Assembly (NCBI RefSeq): GCF_900142985.1
Contig: NZ_LT670849.1
Location: 4,294,501 to 4,358,500, forward strand
DNA: 64,000 bases
Origin: Bradyrhizobium erythrophlei
Lineage (GTDB): Bacteria > Pseudomonadota > Alphaproteobacteria > Rhizobiales > Xanthobacteraceae
Reading direction: 5' to 3'
The notes under the pieces: model-generated
Databases searched by the model: none
What the model was told of the DNA's origin: nothing
What the model saw: the letters and a program-made list of their open reading frames with translations, nothing else
Position numbers and translations under genes: made by a program
In this document: positions 1,919-60,457 of the stretch, in pieces
Position numbering within the stretch: position 1 is the stretch's first letter
Layout of the letters: each line of letters opens with the position of its first letter

Positions 1919-1993
1919 TCGGCGGTTCACACTCCGGCTATCGAAAAGCCCGGCGTCACAGGCTGTGTGAGAACTGGGGCAAATCAGATAGAG

Positions 1994-2024
1994 AGGCCGC
2001 ATCATTAATGATGCGGCCTTTTTC
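1994..2024 (+). terminator. Terminator inside the IS, just before the transposase start
   Basis: A perfect 12-bp inverted repeat (AGGCCGCATCAT, loop TA, and its complement, 1994-2019) followed by TTTTTC ends one base before the transposase ATG at 2025. It should stop transcription entering from the flanking gene and may also hide the start region in a stem. This is a common way for insertion sequences to limit impinging transposase expression. The same hairpin precedes copy 2 at 18018-18043. Confidence 0.8.
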
Positions 2025-3437
2025 ATGCGCTACATTCGAGGTGGGGACCGTAACCAGGCGAGTTTTTTGCCGGCACGGATCGATGATTACGTTGCCGCTG
2101 ATGCGGCGGTGCGGGTAATCGATGCCTTTGTTGAAGGTCTCGATATGTTCGGGCTCGGCTTGGTTCGAGCGACACCGGCGGCGACCGGGCGGCCCGGCTA
2201 TGACCCGCGCGATCTTCTGAAGCTCTATATCTACGGGTACCTCAACGAGGTTCGTTCGAGCCGCAAGCTGGAACGCGAGTGCCGGCGCAATGTCGAACTG
2301 ATGTGGCTGTTGGGGCGGCTTGCCCCCGACTTCAAAACAATTGCGGACTTTCGGCGGGACAATGCAGCCGGGATCGTAGGGGCATGCCGGGCCTTCGTGC
2401 TGTTCTGCCGCGAGCAAGGACTATTTGCGGCCCGTCTGGTGGCCCTCGACGGTTCGAAGTTCCGGGCGGTGGCGAGCGCCAAGCGGATTATGGGCGAACG
2501 CAAGGTCGCCGAAGAGGCCGGCCGGATCGATCAACAGATCGCGGCTTATCTTGCCAACCTCGACAGCATCGATGCGGGCGAGCGGGCCGATAGCGATGCG
2601 GAACAAACGGCTGCGGCTCTCCAGGCTCTCAGGGCACGCCGCACCGACCTTGATGCTCTGGCGGCGCGACTTAAGGCGGAAGATCGGACTAGTCTTGTAG
2701 AAGGTGAGCTCGATGCGCGGCCGATGGGTAAAGGGGCAGGCTCCAAGCCTCCTTCCTACAATGTCCAGACGGCGGTCGATGCTGCGACGGGGCTGATCGT
2801 CCACCATGAGGTTACAACCGAACCCACCGACAACCGGCTGCTCCATCCGATGGCCAAGGCGACGAAGGATGCGGTGGCGGCCGATACGCTCACGGTGGTG
2901 GCGGACGCTGGCTATTCGAACGGAGCAGACGCGGCAGCCTGCGAGAACGATGGCATCACGCCTTGTGTGCCAGCGAACCGGGCCGTCAACAATCAAGGCG
3001 ACTTCTTCGACCGCACGGCCTTCATCTATGAGCCGCAAACCGACAGTTTTCGTTGTCCGGCGGGCCGAACACTGGTGCGCAAGCAAATCCTCACCAGAAA
3101 GCAGAGCGTCTTGTATATCGCCGACGATTGTTCGGGTTGCGCGCTCAAGCCGAGATGCACCCGCGTCGAGCGCCGCTTCGTTCAAAGACACCTTTACGAG
3201 GACGCGCTTCAACGCATGAATGCCCGCGTCGAAGCCGATCCACACCTCATGCGGCAGCGGCGATGCGCGGCTGAACACCCGTTCGGAACCATCAAGCGGA
3301 TGACGGCTGGCGGCAGGTTCCTCACCCGAGGCCTTACCAACGTCAAGACTGAAGCCGCCCTCAGCGTTCTTGTCTACAACATCATGCGGGTCATCAATCT
3401 CATCGGCTCGCAAAGCCTCAAGATTAGGCTCGCCTGA
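2025..3437 (+). CDS. IS1182-family transposase
   Basis: 470 residues. The N-terminal DNA-binding region (about 10-125) starts with the family-typical RYIRGGDRNQASFLPARIDDY. The catalytic DDE core is visible as D142 (LVALDGSKF), D294 (VVADAGYSNG) and E417 (RRCAAEHPFGTIKR). A cysteine cluster CSGCALKPRC (369-378) sits before the E motif, as in IS1182 transposases. The start at 2025 fits the conserved N-terminus. Protein is identical to that of copy 2. Confidence 0.93.
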   Translation: MRYIRGGDRNQASFLPARIDDYVAADAAVRVIDAFVEGLDMFGLGLVRATPAATGRPGYDPRDLLKLYIYGYLNEVRSSRKLERECRRNVELMWLLGRLAPDFKTIADFRRDNAAGIVGACRAFVLFCREQGLFAARLVALDGSKFRAVASAKRIMGERKVAEEAGRIDQQIAAYLANLDSIDAGERADSDAEQTAAALQALRARRTDLDALAARLKAEDRTSLVEGELDARPMGKGAGSKPPSYNVQTAVDAATGLIVHHEVTTEPTDNRLLHPMAKATKDAVAADTLTVVADAGYSNGADAAACENDGITPCVPANRAVNNQGDFFDRTAFIYEPQTDSFRCPAGRTLVRKQILTRKQSVLYIADDCSGCALKPRCTRVERRFVQRHLYEDALQRMNARVEADPHLMRQRRCAAEHPFGTIKRMTAGGRFLTRGLTNVKTEAALSVLVYNIMRVINLIGSQSLKIRLA

Positions 3438-6404: not shown

Positions 6405-6477
6405 GGCTGTGCTCCAGCAGGTTCAACGCGAAGCGTATCAGCCAGTCATCGTCCGGTCATGTGCCAATTTTGCACCC

Positions 6478-6541
6478 CGTCATTGCCTGCGACAAACGCA
6501 CAGCGTTTGCGCAAGGGAGTGAAACGACGAAGTAGCGACCG
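6478..6541. repeat. Fragment of dispersed palindromic repeat
   Basis: GTCATTGCCTGCGACAAACG at 6478 and the following GCAAGGGAGTGAAACGACGA recall parts of the repeats at 58621-58728 and 60328-60409, without the full pairing partner. It looks like a decayed copy in the gap between the two leftward genes. Confidence 0.5.
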
Positions 6542-8379: not shown

Positions 8380-8550
8380 CTAGTGTCCACTTTTCCGAAG
8401 TTCGTGCTCTGTCGCAGCACCCACCTTTCACGAACTTCGGAAAGTCATGGACACTAGCAAACTTATTGATTCCAGTACCGCTTCCCTATTTGAAGTTCCT
8501 GGATCGAATTCGCCGCTTGTGGTGCAGGAACTTCGAACAGGCGGTACTGG
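8380..8550 (-). repeat. Twin-hairpin element A
   Basis: Two hairpins joined by 14 nt. H1 (8380-8457) has outer arms CTAGTGTCCA/TGGACACTAG, an inner stem of about 16 bp ending at CCGAAGTTCGTG, and a 22-nt loop (8407-8428) holding TCGCAGC. H2 (8472-8550) has outer arms CCAGTACCGC/GCGGTACTGG, an inner stem with TTGAAGTTCCTG and a 23-nt loop (8502-8524) holding CGAATTCGCCG. An inverted copy lies at 16676-16843 and a diverged third member at 44035-44203. H1 faces the start codon of the leftward DUF2188 gene. No coding sequence is convincing here; the 300-bp gap holds only this element. Confidence 0.85.
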
Positions 8551-16675: not shown

Positions 16676-16843
16676 CCAGTGCCGCCTATTTGAAGTTCCT
16701 GCACCACAAGCGGCGAACTCGATCCAGGAACTTCAAATAGAAAGCGGCACTAGAATCATGAGTTTGCTAGTACCCATAACTTTCCGAAGTTCGTGGATGG
16801 TGGGTGCTGAGATGGTGCACGAACTTCGGAAAGTGGGTACTAG
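16676..16843 (+). repeat. Twin-hairpin element B (inverted copy of element A)
   Basis: Reading rightward: H2 (16676-16753), outer arms CCAGTGCCGC/GCGGCACTAG, perfect inner stem CTATTTGAAGTTCCTG; 13-nt spacer; H1 (16767-16843), outer arms CTAGTACCCA/TGGGTACTAG, inner CCGAAGTTCGTG. In the orientation of element A the loops read CGAGTTCGCCG (H2) and TCTCAGC (H1). Relative to A, two base pairs of the H1 outer stem and one of the H2 outer stem are exchanged on both sides. H1 ends seven bases before the DUF3280 start at 16851 and overlaps its ribosome site. Nothing else was found in the 16485-16850 gap. Confidence 0.85.
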
Positions 16844-17946: not shown

Positions 17947-17982
17947 AGGCGAAGATTTTCAGAAGAAAAAAGCCGGGCTTTC

Positions 17983-19521
17983 CAGGCTGTGTGAGAACTG
18001 GGGCAAATCAGATAGAGAGGCCGCATCATTAATGATGCGGCCTTTTTCATGCGCTACATTCGAGGTGGGGACCGTAACCAGGCGAGTTTTTTGCCGGCAC
18101 GGATCGATGATTACGTTGCCGCTGATGCGGCGGTGCGGGTAATCGATGCCTTTGTTGAAGGTCTCGATATGTTCGGGCTCGGCTTGGTTCGAGCGACACC
18201 GGCGGCGACCGGGCGGCCCGGCTATGACCCGCGCGATCTTCTGAAGCTCTATATCTACGGGTACCTCAACGAGGTTCGTTCGAGCCGCAAGCTGGAACGC
18301 GAGTGCCGGCGCAATGTCGAACTGATGTGGCTGTTGGGGCGGCTTGCCCCCGACTTCAAAACAATTGCGGACTTTCGGCGGGACAATGCAGCCGGGATCG
18401 TAGGGGCATGCCGGGCCTTCGTGCTGTTCTGCCGCGAGCAGGGACTATTTGCGGCCCGTCTGGTGGCCCTCGACGGTTCGAAGTTCCGGGCGGTGGCGAG
18501 CGCCAAGCGGATTATGGGCGAACGCAAGGTCGCCGAAGAGGCCGGCCGGATCGATCAACAGATCGCGGCTTATCTTGCCAACCTCGACAGCATCGATGCG
18601 GGCGAGCGGGCCGATAGCGATGCGGAACAAACGGCTGCGGCTCTCCAGGCTCTCAGGGCACGCCGCACCGACCTTGATGCTCTGGCGGCGCGACTTAAGG
18701 CGGAAGATCGGACTAGTCTTGTAGAAGGTGAGCTCGATGCGCGGCCGATGGGTAAAGGGGCAGGCTCCAAGCCTCCTTCCTACAATGTCCAGACGGCGGT
18801 CGATGCTGCGACGGGGCTGATCGTCCACCATGAGGTTACAACCGAACCCACCGACAACCGGCTGCTCCATCCGATGGCCAAGGCGACGAAGGATGCGGTG
18901 GCGGCCGATACGCTCACGGTGGTGGCGGACGCTGGCTATTCGAACGGAGCAGACGCGGCAGCCTGCGAGAACGATGGCATCACGCCTTGTGTGCCAGCGA
19001 ACCGGGCCGTCAACAATCAGGGCGACTTCTTCGACCGCACGGCCTTCATCTATGAGCCGCAAACCGACAGTTTTCGTTGTCCGGCGGGCCGAACACTGGT
19101 GCGCAAGCAAATCCTCACCAGAAAGCAGAGCGTCTTGTATATCGCCGACGATTGTTCGGGTTGCGCGCTCAAGCCGAGATGCACCCGCGTCGAGCGCCGC
19201 TTCGTTCAAAGACACCTTTACGAGGACGCGCTTCAACGCATGAATGCCCGCGTCGAAGCCGATCCACACCTCATGCGGCAGCGGCGATGCGCGGCTGAAC
19301 ACCCGTTCGGAACCATCAAGCGGATGACGGCTGGCGGCAGGTTCCTCACCCGAGGCCTTACCAACGTCAAGACTGAAGCCGCCCTCAGCGTTCTTGTCTA
19401 CAACATCATGCGGGTCATCAATCTCATCGGCTCGCAAAGCCTCAAGATTAGGCTCGCCTGACCCTAAAAATTAAAAAAAGAGGCCCCGGATCACCGCAGC
19501 CTCTCGTTTCCACACAGCCTG
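17983..19521 (+). mobile_element. IS1182-type insertion sequence, copy 2 (1539 bp)
   Basis: Same ends, orientation and content as copy 1. Distinguished by G at 18441 and 19020 (both silent in Gln codons) and one extra A near 19475. Flanked by a TTTC direct repeat. The internal hairpin-terminator before the transposase is at 18018-18043. Confidence 0.94.
18049..19461 (+). CDS. IS1182-family transposase (copy 2)
   Basis: 470 residues, identical in protein sequence to the transposase at 2025-3437, with D142, D294 and E417 as the DDE residues. Intact and probably active; two identical copies in direct orientation 16 kb apart could recombine and delete 3.5-19.5 kb. Confidence 0.93.
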   Translation: MRYIRGGDRNQASFLPARIDDYVAADAAVRVIDAFVEGLDMFGLGLVRATPAATGRPGYDPRDLLKLYIYGYLNEVRSSRKLERECRRNVELMWLLGRLAPDFKTIADFRRDNAAGIVGACRAFVLFCREQGLFAARLVALDGSKFRAVASAKRIMGERKVAEEAGRIDQQIAAYLANLDSIDAGERADSDAEQTAAALQALRARRTDLDALAARLKAEDRTSLVEGELDARPMGKGAGSKPPSYNVQTAVDAATGLIVHHEVTTEPTDNRLLHPMAKATKDAVAADTLTVVADAGYSNGADAAACENDGITPCVPANRAVNNQGDFFDRTAFIYEPQTDSFRCPAGRTLVRKQILTRKQSVLYIADDCSGCALKPRCTRVERRFVQRHLYEDALQRMNARVEADPHLMRQRRCAAEHPFGTIKRMTAGGRFLTRGLTNVKTEAALSVLVYNIMRVINLIGSQSLKIRLA

Positions 19522-23497: not shown

Positions 23498-24519
23498 CGC
23501 ATCACCTCATTGTCGATGGTGCCGCGCTCGACATAGCCGAGCGTGAGTTCGGCAAGCGCCGGCGCCAGCAGGAAGCCGTGGCGATAGAGCCCGTTCACCG
23601 CGATGCGCTCGTTATCGATCGCGATGCGCGGCAGGTTGTCAGGGTAGGCCGGGCGCAGCCCCGAGCCGAATTCGAGGATGCGCGCTTCGCCAAAGGCCGG
23701 ATGCACGGCATAGGCCGCGCCCAATAGCTCAAGCGCCGAGCGGACGCTGACGCCGCTGTTCTCGCTCTCGATCGAGGTCGCCCCCAGCATGAAACGGTGG
23801 TTCTCGCGCGGGATCACGTACAGCGGAAAGCGCGGATGGATCAGCCGCACCGGGCGCTTGAGCTCGACCTCGTCGGTCTCGATCAGGATCAGCTCGCCCT
23901 TGACGCCGCGAAGCTCGCTTTGTTCGTTTCGCGCGGCGAGCCCGCGGCAATCGATCACGATGCCGTCGACATCCTCAGGCTCGATCCGGCTGTCGAACGC
24001 GATGTTGCCGCCGGCTGCGCGAATGCGCGCATGGATCTCGGGCAGGATCTTGCGCGGCTCGACATGGCCTTCCTCGGCATAGAACAGTCCCTCGCGAAAG
24101 CGTCCTTCGAGCCAAGGCTCGATCTCGCTGACGCCTTGCGCATCGAGCCGCTGGTAGCCGCTCGTCAGCCGCGCGAAGCGTTCGAAATCGGCGCGGTCGC
24201 GCGCATGCGCCACCACCAGCGAGCCGTTGAAGGCGGTGTCCGGAAAATAGTCGCGCCACAGTTTCAGCGAACGAAGGCCCAGCCGTACGATCGCGGGCTC
24301 GGTGGCTTCGGCCTCGCAATAGGGCGCGAGCATGCCGCCGGCCCAGTGGCTGGTGGATTGCGTCATCGCGGCGTCGCTGCGCTCGTGTAGCGTCACGCTG
24401 CGGCCGGCGTTGGCGAATAACAGCGCTTGCCAGGCACCTGCGATGCCTGCGCCGATCACAGAAATCGGGGTGACGGAAATCGGGGAATCCCCCCGCGGGT
24501 TCGTCGAATTCTGGTACAT
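23488..24519 (-). CDS. thiO: Glycine oxidase ThiO
   Basis: 343 residues. FAD-binding GxGxxG as VIGAGIAGAWQALLFANAG near residue 20 with the acidic end HERSD, and the C-terminal LPRIAIDNERIAVNGLYRHGFLLAPALAEL of D-amino-acid-oxidase-type enzymes. Oxidises glycine to dehydroglycine for the thiazole ring. First gene of the operon; the ATG is five bases past the TPP riboswitch. Confidence 0.93.
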   Translation of the reverse strand: MYQNSTNPRGDSPISVTPISVIGAGIAGAWQALLFANAGRSVTLHERSDAAMTQSTSHWAGGMLAPYCEAEATEPAIVRLGLRSLKLWRDYFPDTAFNGSLVVAHARDRADFERFARLTSGYQRLDAQGVSEIEPWLEGRFREGLFYAEEGHVEPRKILPEIHARIRAAGGNIAFDSRIEPEDVDGIVIDCRGLAARNEQSELRGVKGELILIETDEVELKRPVRLIHPRFPLYVIPRENHRFMLGATSIESENSGVSVRSALELLGAAYAVHPAFGEARILEFGSGLRPAYPDNLPRIAIDNERIAVNGLYRHGFLLAPALAELTLGYVERGTIDNEVMRCA

Positions 24520-24524
24520 CCCTG

Positions 24525-24636
24525 TCCCTTCGCCGGCATGACCCGGATCAGGTTCAAAGGGTCACCGCGGTCTCCTGGTCCTGAAAATGGGACCCGGAGG
24601 GTGCAGTCTCTCAGCTCCTCGTCGGAGCTCCCCTCG
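24525..24636 (-). promoter_or_regulatory. TPP riboswitch (THI element)
   Basis: Read leftward: GGGG-AGC opening, GAGCTGAGA (pyrimidine-sensor CUGAGA), ACCC with an extended P3 arm, then ACCCTTTGAACCTGATCCGG and GTCATGCCGGCGAAGGGA, the universal ACCUGAUC and closing AAGGGA. The closing strand of P1 doubles as the ribosome site (AAGGGA) a few bases before the thiO ATG, so thiamine pyrophosphate binding should block translation. Confidence 0.95.
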
Positions 24637-24721
24637 GAACAGGCTCAATTTAGGCTTATGGACGAAGCTGTCAACGCGTCCGACCGGGAACTGCACCGAT
24701 TGCATAGCTCAGACGCTTTGC

Positions 24722-30992: not shown

Positions 30993-31078
30993 GTCATTGC
31001 GAGCGAAGCGAAGCAATCCAGTCATGACCGCGGATAAGGATTCTGGATTGCTTCGTCGCCTGCGCTCCTCGCAATGAC
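30993..31078. repeat. Dispersed palindromic repeat, GTCATTGCGAGCG class
   Basis: GTCATTGCGAGCGAAGCGAA and TGCGCTCCTCGCAATGAC are the outer arms; GCAATCCAG and CTGGATTGC the inner arms. Related copies at 58621 and 60328. Confidence 0.88.
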
Positions 31079-44034: not shown

Positions 44035-44203
44035 CCAGTGGTCCGATTTCAACATTCGCATCCCTTCTCAGCGGGCAGTCTTGCGAATGTCGAAATCAAA
44101 GGGCCACCTGAAGAAATTCATCTTCACTGGAGCTTTGGATTTTGCATTCGCCTTACGAACTCGCCGTCAGGTCTGCAGCGAATGTCAAATCCGCTCCAGT
44201 GGT
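44035..44203 (-). repeat. Twin-hairpin element C
   Basis: H1 (44035-44110): outer CCAGTGGTCC/GGGCCACCTG, inner GATTTCAACATTCGCA, 21-nt loop (44061-44081) with TCTCAGC. H2 (44125-44201): outer CACTGGAGC/GCTCCAGTG, inner GGATTTTGCATTCGC, 26-nt loop (44152-44177) with CGAACTCGCCG. Architecture and loop motifs match elements A and B; the inner stems have no sequence in common with them. CCAGTGGTCCG occurs at both ends. H1 faces the small gene at 43919-44011. The 44204-44367 remainder holds nothing recognisable. Confidence 0.75.
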
Positions 44204-46892: not shown

Positions 46893-47135
46893 GTCATGGC
46901 CGGGCTTGCCGCCTTCGCTAAAGCTTCGGCGGCCAAGTGAGCTAGTGGCCCCGGCGAAGCCTTGGCGGAGACGGGACCCGGCCATCCACGTCGTCGGTCT
47001 CCCAAAGTAAGACGTGGATCACCGGGCATAGGCGAGTGGAAGCTACGCCGTTCTTCGAACGGCTAGGCCCGGTGATGACGAGTGGATAGATTGCTTCGTC
47101 GCTAACGCTCTCTTGCGTTTGTCGCACGCAATGAC
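46893..47135. repeat. Composite dispersed repeat
   Basis: GTCATGGCCGGGCTTGCC, then GGACCCGGCCATCCACGTCG and the GTGATGACG, GATTGCTTCGTCGC, GCACGCAATGACGG blocks: at least two repeat families end to end. It fills the gap between the convergent hydrolase and Bug-type genes. Confidence 0.75.
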
Positions 47136-47161
47136 GGGGGTGCAGCCAACGACGCCAACGC

Positions 47162-49278: not shown

Positions 49279-49457
49279 CGTTCCTTGCGTCAGCGCGGTG
49301 CTTGGTCCCCTTTTCGCCAGAAAGGGCCGCTCCTTGATACCCGAGCTCGCTGATGAACGGTGTGAACTGGGTCACAAGCGGCCGCTCGTCTGGAGACCGA
49401 GGCGCGCCGCCGGCCTCACCAGGAGGCGGACATCACGACTATCGAACACGAAGTCAG

Positions 49458-49530
49458 CTTCGGGTCACTAACGGATGTCACAGCTCGACGTCGTCATGTC
49501 TGTTTCGTCCTCAAGCAGCGGACATCGACG
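49458..49530. repeat. TCACTAACGG repeat, copy 1
   Basis: CTTCGGGTCACTAACGG, then TCACAGCTCGACGTCGTCATGTC and AGCAGCGGACATCG. Same order of blocks at 50491-50565 and 55675-55767. The 49279-49777 gap otherwise holds only a doubtful small frame. Confidence 0.8.
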
Positions 49531-50490: not shown

Positions 50491-50565
50491 CTTCCGCTCC
50501 GGGTCACTAACGGAAGCCACAGCTTGGCGTCGTCATGTCTGTTTCGCGCTTGGCAGCGGACATCG
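50491..50565. repeat. TCACTAACGG repeat, copy 2
   Basis: CTTCCGCTCCGGGTCACTAA, CGGAAGCCACAGC, GTCGTCATGTCTG, GCAGCGGACATCG in the same order as copy 1. A MITE-like element lies 31 bp downstream. Confidence 0.8.
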
Positions 50566-55674: not shown

Positions 55675-55767
55675 ACTCCGTTTGGGGTTACTAACGCACT
55701 CCGTTTGGGGTTACTAACGGAAGTCACATCTCGGCGTCGTCATGTCGGCCGCAGCAGCGGACATCGC
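55675..55767. repeat. TTACTAACGG repeat, copy 3, with internal tandem duplication
   Basis: ACTCCGTTTGGGGTTACTAA followed by CG occurs twice in succession (about 23-bp period, 55675-55720), then the same AGTCACATCTCGGCGTCGTC, ATGTCGG and AGCAGCGGACATCG blocks as copies 1 and 2. Confidence 0.82.
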
Positions 55768-58620: not shown

Positions 58621-58728
58621 GTCATCGCGAGCGACAGCGAAGCGATCCAGAGTTACTCCTTGGCCCTGGATTGCTTCGTCGCGTGCGCTCCCGTGCGCAA
58701 ACGCTTTGCGTTTGTCGCAGGCAATGAC
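58621..58728. repeat. Dispersed palindromic repeat, GTCATCGCGAGCG class
   Basis: GTCATCGCGAGCGACAGCGA and GTCGCAGGCAATGAC outer arms; GCGATCCAG and CTGGATTGC inner. It lies between the adaptor and transporter genes of one operon. The GCAAACGCTTTGCG inner palindrome also occurs in part at 6478. Confidence 0.85.
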
Positions 58729-58742
58729 GGATCAGTCGCATC

Positions 58743-60327: not shown

Positions 60328-60409
60328 GCCGTCATTGCGAGGAGTGAAACGACGAAGCAATCCAGAATCCTTGAGCGGTTCCGCTGGATTGCTTCGCTAC
60401 GCTCGCAAT
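60328..60409. repeat. Dispersed palindromic repeat, GTCATTGCGAG class
   Basis: GTCATTGCGAGGAGTGAAAC and GCTACGCTCGCAATGAC outer arms, GCAATCCAG and CTGGATTGC inner arms. Confidence 0.88.
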
Positions 60410-60457
60410 GACCGCGTGGATGTTGTCTGATCCGAGAATCCGTGGTTGAAGGGCCGG

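What the first reader, a model, noticed from the sequence alone, without database searches (positions are those of the whole stretch)
44035..44203. Third twin-hairpin element: same architecture and loop motifs, wholly different stems
Element C has the same 76 + 14 + 77 nt layout, but its inner stems have CATTCGC motifs where A and B have GAAGTTC. Even so, the H1 loop keeps TC(G/T)CAGC at the same distance from the 5' side of the loop in all three (TCGCAGC, TCTCAGC, TCTCAGC), and the H2 loop keeps CGA(A/G)(T/C)TCGCCG (CGAATTCGCCG, CGAGTTCGCCG, CGAACTCGCCG). Conserved loops on freely diverging stems are the hallmark of a structured family whose loops are recognised. All feet start with C(C/T)AGT or its mirror. 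I do not know a named family with this form.
Basis: seen in the sequence. Interest (0 to 1): 0.85.

Follow-up and report, generated by a model that had tools for sequence, protein, structure and literature searches.

The report
Twin-hairpin jumping DNA repeat
The finding is one of many copies of a small, gene-less jumping DNA element made of two hairpins that most likely borrows the enzyme of a larger transposon family; its paired stems look like transposon ends, not like a new RNA.

Summary
The element is real and one of a dispersed family: 18 sites in an 800-kb sample of the host genome, about 170 per genome, with hits in 145 of 296 genomes of the family. It is best read as a miniature transposon (MITE) moved in trans by IS630/Tc1-mariner transposases. 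(1) Orthologous sites without the element carry CTAG at the junction in 7 of 10 loci read. (2) Outer hairpin arms match IS630 ends (17.0 of 26 positions; shuffles 10.2); inner arms do not (10.75; outer better in 168 of 172). Element C's own arms score 18 and 17. (3) One twin sits in the inner CTAG of another, and that composite occurs at two sites. Inner arms are mirror copies of the end, put out of register by a bulge, mostly 3 or 4 nt. Stem changes are strongly paired but show no G-T preference, which fits DNA template-switch correction better than RNA selection. A short loop core is conserved across both subfamilies, role unknown. The mobilising IS was not identified. New variant of a known kind; the twin plan was not found in my literature searches.

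The parts
44035..44110 (+). Element C, hairpin 1 (X type, CATTCGC subfamily)
   Evidence: 73.2 bits
44035..44059 (+). Outer arm of hairpin 1 = left IS630-like terminal inverted repeat (end decayed to CCAG)
   Evidence: 18 of 26 against an IS630 end; inner arm 11
44098..44100 (+). 3-nt bulge (AAA) in the inner arm of hairpin 1, which shifts the inner arm out of register with IS ends
44111..44123 (+). 13-nt spacer between the hairpins
   Evidence: spacer 11-16 nt in 89 distinct twins, 13 in 50
44124..44202 (-). Element C, hairpin 2 (Y type; mirror image of hairpin 1, bulge on the 5' side)
   Evidence: 65.0 bits
44178..44202 (-). Outer arm of hairpin 2 = right IS630-like terminal inverted repeat (end decayed to CCAC)
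   Evidence: 17 of 26; inner arm 8
8380..8457 (+). Element A, hairpin 1 (GAAGTTC subfamily)
   Evidence: its outer arm matches IS ends weakly (12 of 26)
8472..8550 (-). Element A, hairpin 2
   Evidence: 14 of 26
16767..16843 (-). Element B, hairpin 1 (GAAGTTC subfamily; element on the minus strand)
   Evidence: 17 of 26
16676..16753 (+). Element B, hairpin 2
   Evidence: outer arm matches IS ends weakly (12 of 26)

Best explanation
The twin hairpin is a ~165-nt non-autonomous transposon (MITE) mobilised in trans by IS630/Tc1-mariner-type DDE transposases. Shown by sequence: it inserts at CTAG; outer arms match IS630 terminal inverted repeats in register from CTAG; stem types mostly agree with IS630 end types; near-identical copies stand at different places in single genomes; copies nest in each other at CTAG, and one nested composite occurs at two sites; each hairpin is the end, a loop of about 21-27 nt and a mirror copy of the end, and the mirror copy is out of register with IS ends (mostly 3 or 4 extra nt). 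Inferred: that shift silences the inner ends, so the pair moves as one unit. Inferred: complementarity of the arms is kept by replication template switching in the hairpin (quasipalindrome correction), not by selection on an RNA. Inferred from the literature on IS630 and ISY100: TA within CTAG is the duplicated target.
For: Empty sites: of 10 orthologous loci read at 5 of 7 insertion sites, 7 carry CTAG at the junction, at least one for each of the 5 sites. Adjoining elements share one CTAG (L164 in the host, L394). A GAAGTTC-type twin lies in the inner CTAG of a CATTCGC-type twin, and this composite stands at two places with different flanks (L406, L408). Outer arms match the best of 37 IS630 ends at 17.0 of 26 positions; inner arms 10.75; shuffled arms 10.2 +/- 1.7; outer better in 168 of 172, equal in 3, worse in 1. 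With only the 20 AGTTCG-type ends: outer 15.4, inner 7.7, shuffled 8.6. Element C: 18 and 17 of 26, inner arms 11 and 8. The G010 twin arm matches an IS630 end at 22 of 26. Stem type and IS end type mostly agree. Near-identical twins at 7 sites in G010. IS630 relatives at E <= 1e-30 in 107 of 195 genus genomes.
Against: No IS630 transposase is detected in the host genome (0 for DDE_3 at E <= 0.001; 0 at E <= 1e-30), so its copies must be relics or depend on a lost or undetected enzyme. G010 has 17 DDE_3 matches but no further copy of its twins' ends within 3 mismatches: 14 arms form exactly 7 twins, so the mobiliser was not identified. 3 of 10 empty loci lack CTAG at the junction. Best arm matches are 20-22 of 26, not identity, and 9 of 172 outer arms score 13 or less, and one arm each of window elements A and B scores 12 of 26. 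I chose the query after seeing that its IS had ends like the twins, which biases the set of IS ends towards a match. TA or CTAG as the duplicated stretch cannot be told apart. No transposition was observed.
Confidence: 0.87

Rival explanations
1. A structured RNA family (sRNA, mRNA element or terminator) kept by selection on RNA pairing, with loops recognised by a protein or RNA.
For: Strong covariation (22 of 26 pairs with a compensatory change; 42 paired double changes against 2.3 expected), conserved loop core, 0 of 21 elements inside a predicted gene.
Against: Insertion at CTAG, nesting and IS630 ends explain the stems. Single changes show no G-T excess (29 against 24). No Rfam match at gathering score. 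Near-identical copies at different places in one genome.
Confidence: 0.07
2. REPIN-like elements moved by Y1 (RAYT/TIRYT) transposases, with CTAG as the cleavage site.
For: Inverted pair of hairpins; self-complementary, often dimeric TIRs of TIRYTs are described (PMC3733652, section read); Y1 matches in 67 of 117 genus genomes.
Against: The host and G010, which has near-identical twins, have no Y1_Tnp match at E <= 0.001; many genus Y1 proteins score near the cut-off, so a diverged one could be missed. 0 of 30 fetched Y1 loci (1.5 kb each side) carry the hairpin. Ends match IS630.
Confidence: 0.03
3. Another DDE transposase with CTAG preference (IS5-group or IS481-type) is the mobiliser, and the resemblance to IS630 ends is chance or shared target bias.
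For: CTAG preference of those families is recalled, from no call; their ends were not compared here.
Against: The IS630 match runs well inside the foot: positions 15-30 give outer 11.2 of 16, inner 5.9, shuffled 6.8.
Confidence: 0.03
4. Origin variant, not exclusive with the best explanation: each hairpin is itself a minimal foldback MITE with CTAG on both sides, and the twin is a composite of two of them that now moves as a unit.
For: CTAG at both feet in 88 of 172 hairpins; adjoining hairpins with a shared CTAG and no spacer in L400.
Against: Lone hairpins are rare: 15 of 215 placed hairpins had no partner in that scan, and at least 6 of the 15 have a weaker-scoring partner.
Confidence: 0.3

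Closest known systems
RUP (repeat unit of pneumococcus), proposed to be mobilised by IS630-Spn1
   Same: Small, about 110 copies, non-coding, ends resemble those of an IS630-family IS, TA-containing target (passages read: PMC2229807; PMC3049150)
   Different: RUP is 107 bp and its two ends pair with each other; here each end has its own hairpin with an out-of-register mirror copy
IS630 / ISY100 (Tc1-mariner family)
   Same: Ends, and insertion at TA (PMC2170065, passages read). Preference for TA in CTAG is the title of Tenzen and Ohtsubo 1991, seen only in that paper's reference list
   Different: Autonomous, about 1.14-1.21 kb in the copies measured, encodes the transposase; ends not folded into own hairpins (three elements looked at)
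REPIN / REP with RAYT; TIRYT TIRs (Di Nocera 2013, PMC3733652)
   Same: Hairpins in inverted pairs, high copy, mostly between genes; the paper reports GTAG and CGTC repeats in Bradyrhizobium (passages and section 16 read)
   Different: REPs are 20-40 bp with GTAG or CGTC on one side; no Y1 link found here
Nezha MITE (cyanobacteria)
   Same: MITE with IS-like ends, proposed to be moved by ISNpu3-like elements (one passage, PMC3049150)
   Different: No twin-hairpin plan in the passage seen; the paper on Nezha itself was not read

Membership tests
IS630-dependent MITE | No transposase gene, under ~200 nt, many copies | tested here: met
   164-172 nt in 89 distinct twins; 18 sites per 800 kb
IS630-dependent MITE | Ends homologous to IS630-family ends, in register | tested here: met
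   17.0 of 26 against 10.2 in shuffles; subset controls; 9 of 172 arms at 13 or less
IS630-dependent MITE | Insertion at TA (here in CTAG) with duplication | tested here: met
   7 of 10 empty loci carry CTAG at the junction; filled sites have CTAG on both sides. TA or CTAG duplication not resolvable
IS630-dependent MITE | Cognate IS in the same genome | tested here: not met
   0 in host; G010 has IS630s, none with its twins' ends within 3 mismatches. A lost IS would explain this, and the term MITE does not require one, but the mobiliser stays unidentified
IS630-dependent MITE | Transposition by an IS630 transposase | not testable with these tools
   needs a mobility assay
REP/REPIN with RAYT | Resident or linked Y1 transposase | tested here: not met
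REP/REPIN with RAYT | GTAG (or CGTC) tag on one side of a 20-40 bp palindrome | tested here: not met
   hairpins of about 75-80 nt, CTAG on both sides in 88 of 172
Known Rfam RNA family | Score above gathering threshold | tested here: not met
RNA under selection for pairing | Excess of G-U over A-C among single stem changes | tested here: not met
   29 against 24 in 84 host hairpins

The most novel reading that the evidence does not exclude
A self-correcting transposon end: each end carries a built-in mirror copy, shifted by 3-4 nt so that the transposase ignores it, which serves as a template for repairing or rewriting the real end through hairpin template switching. This would let the MITE keep intact ends over long times without selection between copies and change both arms of a hairpin in concert to follow new transposase types, while the loop core is kept for a separate function (for example transposase or host-factor binding).
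Probability: 0.25. Interest if true: 0.8.

Novelty: new variant of a known kind. Interest (0 to 1): 0.55.

Why it matters
It is a widespread mobile element (hits in 32 of 47 genera of the family) with a plan that I did not find in print in the open library searched. It suggests that strong stem covariation with conserved loops, usually read as a sign of a functional RNA, can come from transposon ends plus palindrome correction at the DNA level. It offers many copies per genome, with orthologous and nested copies, for measuring that correction, and a candidate case of a transposon that carries a template for its own ends.

Tried and rejected
Rfam: nothing at gathering score on the element; one chance-level microRNA match (E 1.9). 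Y1/RAYT partner: not found. Solitary arms that might mark an autonomous copy: in the host sample those inspected were truncated halves or decayed copies, and no IS was recognised in the 320 bases shown for each; in G010 none within 3 mismatches. Inverted repeats around insertion points, seen by eye, were not tested. Direct repeats longer than CTAG at the G010 sites: none seen by eye. First empty-site alignment used wrong locus numbers, redone. A TA-only rule for IS ends gave some wrong boundaries; the CTAG rule was used for counts and drops 7 of 30 loci (6 without a CTAG pair, L363 a fragment). Of three loop patterns tried one, C[AG]GC, is not in excess in CATTCGC-type Y loops (18 of 57, shuffles 17.1); the pattern I report was chosen after looking at the loops.

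Limits: R1 was built from 32 hairpins chosen by me and favours that structure. One search scored 150 of 3831 candidates, up to 40 per genome, up to 16 per genome. The IS ends come from a protein query (L289) chosen after I saw ends like the twins. The double-change test treats copies as independent; the 54 paired double changes of X come from 19 distinct events and the 18 of Y from 15. Left flanks in several empty-site alignments are poorly conserved. Gene calls are crude (71% coding). Absence from print rests on listings and abstracts of an open library that lacks most subscription papers.

Full report
OBSERVATION. The element at 44035-44202 consists of a 76-nt hairpin, a 13-nt spacer and a 79-nt hairpin and folds much better than shuffles. 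Elements A (8380-8550) and B (16676-16843) share the plan. Hairpin 2 is the mirror image of hairpin 1: read in reverse complement, 32 hairpins of both kinds align as one family with a 10-bp foot, a bulge on the 3' side, an inner stem of about 15 bp and a loop of about 21-27 nt. Of 26 predicted pairs, 22 show a compensatory change. Over 172 distinct hairpins the best-fitting bulge is 3 nt in 110, 4 nt in 51, and another size in 11.

COPY NUMBER AND RANGE. In the host genome (7.525 Mb) a search with element C scored 40 of 174 candidates and reported 43 matches, of which 40 cover most of the element. The hairpin model R1 scored 150 of 3831 candidates, all at E <= 1.7e-13. A systematic sample of 40 stretches of 20 kb holds 18 element sites (one a lone hairpin, one two adjoining twins; a copy cut by a stretch edge and a decayed one not counted), that is about 170 per genome. 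R1 hits occur in 75 of 117 genomes of the genus at E <= 1e-3 and in 145 of 296 genomes of the family at E <= 1e-6, in 32 of 47 genera. A DNA search hit none of 24 genomes of other families in the order; R1 was not run on those.

MOBILITY. G010 has seven near-identical twins at different places, bounded by CTAG. Flanks of the seven sites, joined without the element, were searched in 41 genomes, G010 included, and 10 orthologous loci at five of the sites were read. In 7 of 10 the empty site carries CTAG at the junction: site 1 in G003, sites 3 and 4 in G004, site 6 in G003, G020 and G008, site 7 in G003. In three it does not: site 1 in G004 has CTTAA, site 6 in G007 has CTAA, and site 6 in G004 has a displaced CTAG. 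The left flanks of some site-6 loci align poorly. Sites 2 and 5 were not read. Adjoining elements share one CTAG in the host (L164) and in L394, and a CTCG in L398; in L093 two twins meet at a decayed CTCG. In G221 a GAAGTTC-type twin sits in the inner CTAG of a CATTCGC-type twin, and the same composite is present at two places with different flanks (L406, L408). The simplest reading is that the nest formed once and then moved by the outermost ends. CTAG is rare in the host (506 in 864 kb, 905 expected from trinucleotides).

MOBILISER. The host has no Y1_Tnp match at E <= 0.001; G010 has none either and had no first-look candidate. None of 30 fetched Y1 loci elsewhere carries the hairpin. IS630-family elements do fit. 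G010 has 17 DDE_3 matches, and two of its multi-copy IS630s are bounded by CTAG. A protein search found IS630 relatives at E <= 1e-30 in 107 of 195 genomes of the genus; I had picked its query because the ends of that IS resembled the twins, which biases the comparison. Of 30 fetched loci, 23 gave a CTAG-bounded pair of ends. Over positions 5-30 from the end, the outer arms of 172 hairpins match the best of 37 IS ends at 17.0 of 26 positions; shuffled arms reach 10.2 +/- 1.7 and inner arms 10.75. Inner arms with 3 nt removed reach 15.0, as the best of seven removal points, which biases it upward. The outer arm is better in 168 of 172, equal in 3, worse in 1. The result holds with only the 20 AGTTCG-type ends (outer 15.4, inner 7.7, shuffled 8.6), with only the 17 others (15.9, 10.7, 9.8), and for positions 15-30 alone (11.2, 5.9, 6.8 of 16). 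Element C scores 18 and 17 (inner arms 11 and 8); element B 17 and 12; element A only 12 and 14; 9 of 172 arms score 13 or less. Best cases are 22 of 26 for the G010 twin and 20 of 26 for the CATTCGC consensus. CATTCGC-type arms mostly prefer the non-AGTTCG ends (X 49 against 6 with 5 ties, Y 38 against 11 with 8 ties) and GAAGTTC-type arms the AGTTCG ends (X 20 against 7, Y 21 against 4 with 4 ties). Grouping IS ends by the AGTTCG string makes part of that agreement built in.

WHAT IS NOT SHOWN. The host has no IS630 match now, so its copies look like relics of an earlier burst; the best 13 copies are 90-93% identical to L009. In G010 no further arm with the twins' ends exists within 3 mismatches (14 arms, 7 twins), so the enzyme that moved its copies was not identified. 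TA or CTAG as the duplicated stretch cannot be told from sequence; TA is taken from the literature (PMC2170065, passages read).

THE INNER ARMS. The inner arm is complementary to the outer arm, but the bulge puts its inner half out of register with IS ends. I infer that this keeps the inner ends from being used, so that the pair moves as one. Of 215 placed hairpins 15 had no partner in that scan, and at least 6 of these have a weaker-scoring partner. In host copies, single changes fall more on the inner than on the outer side (60 against 36). Truncated host copies end in or near a loop, which suggests deletion at the hairpin tip.

WHY THE STEMS COVARY. In the host's CATTCGC-type copies, paired double changes are far above independence (X 42 against 2.3; Y 18 against 0.6). 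The foot covaries too: of 84 hairpins in which the outer or inner foot is not CTAG, 40 have both changed and still complementary. Single changes do not favour G-T over A-C (16 against 14 in X, 13 against 10 in Y), as they would if an RNA of this strand were under selection. Template switching at quasipalindromes in E. coli makes imperfect inverted repeats more perfect (PMC7202029, abstract and part of the introduction read), and I take this as the most likely cause. Shared descent of copies and the model's preference for paired sequences inflate the counts.

LOOPS. By eye the IS ends do not continue with it.

GENE CONTEXT. None of 21 elements (18 sampled sites and three in the window) lies inside a predicted gene; 10 lie between genes in the same direction, 8 between divergent genes, 2 between convergent genes, 1 at a stretch edge; several overlap or end within a few bases of a predicted gene end (crude gene calls).

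COMPARISON. By behaviour and by ends this is an IS630-type MITE, as RUP is proposed to be (PMC2229807, PMC3049150, passages read). RUP's ends pair with each other; here each end has its own hairpin. It is not a REP or REPIN as described in PMC3733652 (passages and section 16 read). The host is probably Bradyrhizobium: I infer this from named relatives of an IS630 transposase of the same-genus genome G010 (94-97% identity); the host itself is unnamed.

Noticed in passing
window 24507-24644 (-): TPP riboswitch, 69.3 bits against a gathering score of 54.3.
   Followed up: no
window 1944-2243 and 17968-18267: A 300-nt direct repeat, 99% identical, 16 kb apart.
   Followed up: no
window 6475-6519, 30993-31068, 47086-47139, 58666-58730, 60350-60412: What looks like a second dispersed repeat family (GGATTGCTTCGTCGC / GCAATGACGG type), several copies in both orientations.
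   Followed up: no
window 49454-49507, 50493-50546, 55700-55753: Three copies of a 54-nt repeat, 78-89% identical to the reference copy.
   Followed up: no
L138:4044, L151:18826, L165:18138, L144:19027, L137:9521 (host genome): Half-elements: one arm plus part of the loop and then other sequence, as if deleted at the hairpin tip.
   Followed up: partly
L083, L084, L085 (G018, G129, G027): Twins at the same place between flagellar-type genes (my reading of the ORFs, from no call) in three species, with compensatory foot changes: an old, inherited insertion.
   Followed up: partly
L400-L410 (G221), L411-L415 (G226), L416-L419 (G269): Genomes of sister genera with many near-identical hairpins (10 of 11 fetched G221 places share one X hairpin) and arrays of three or four hairpins of mixed type; good places to look for the active IS630.
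   Followed up: partly
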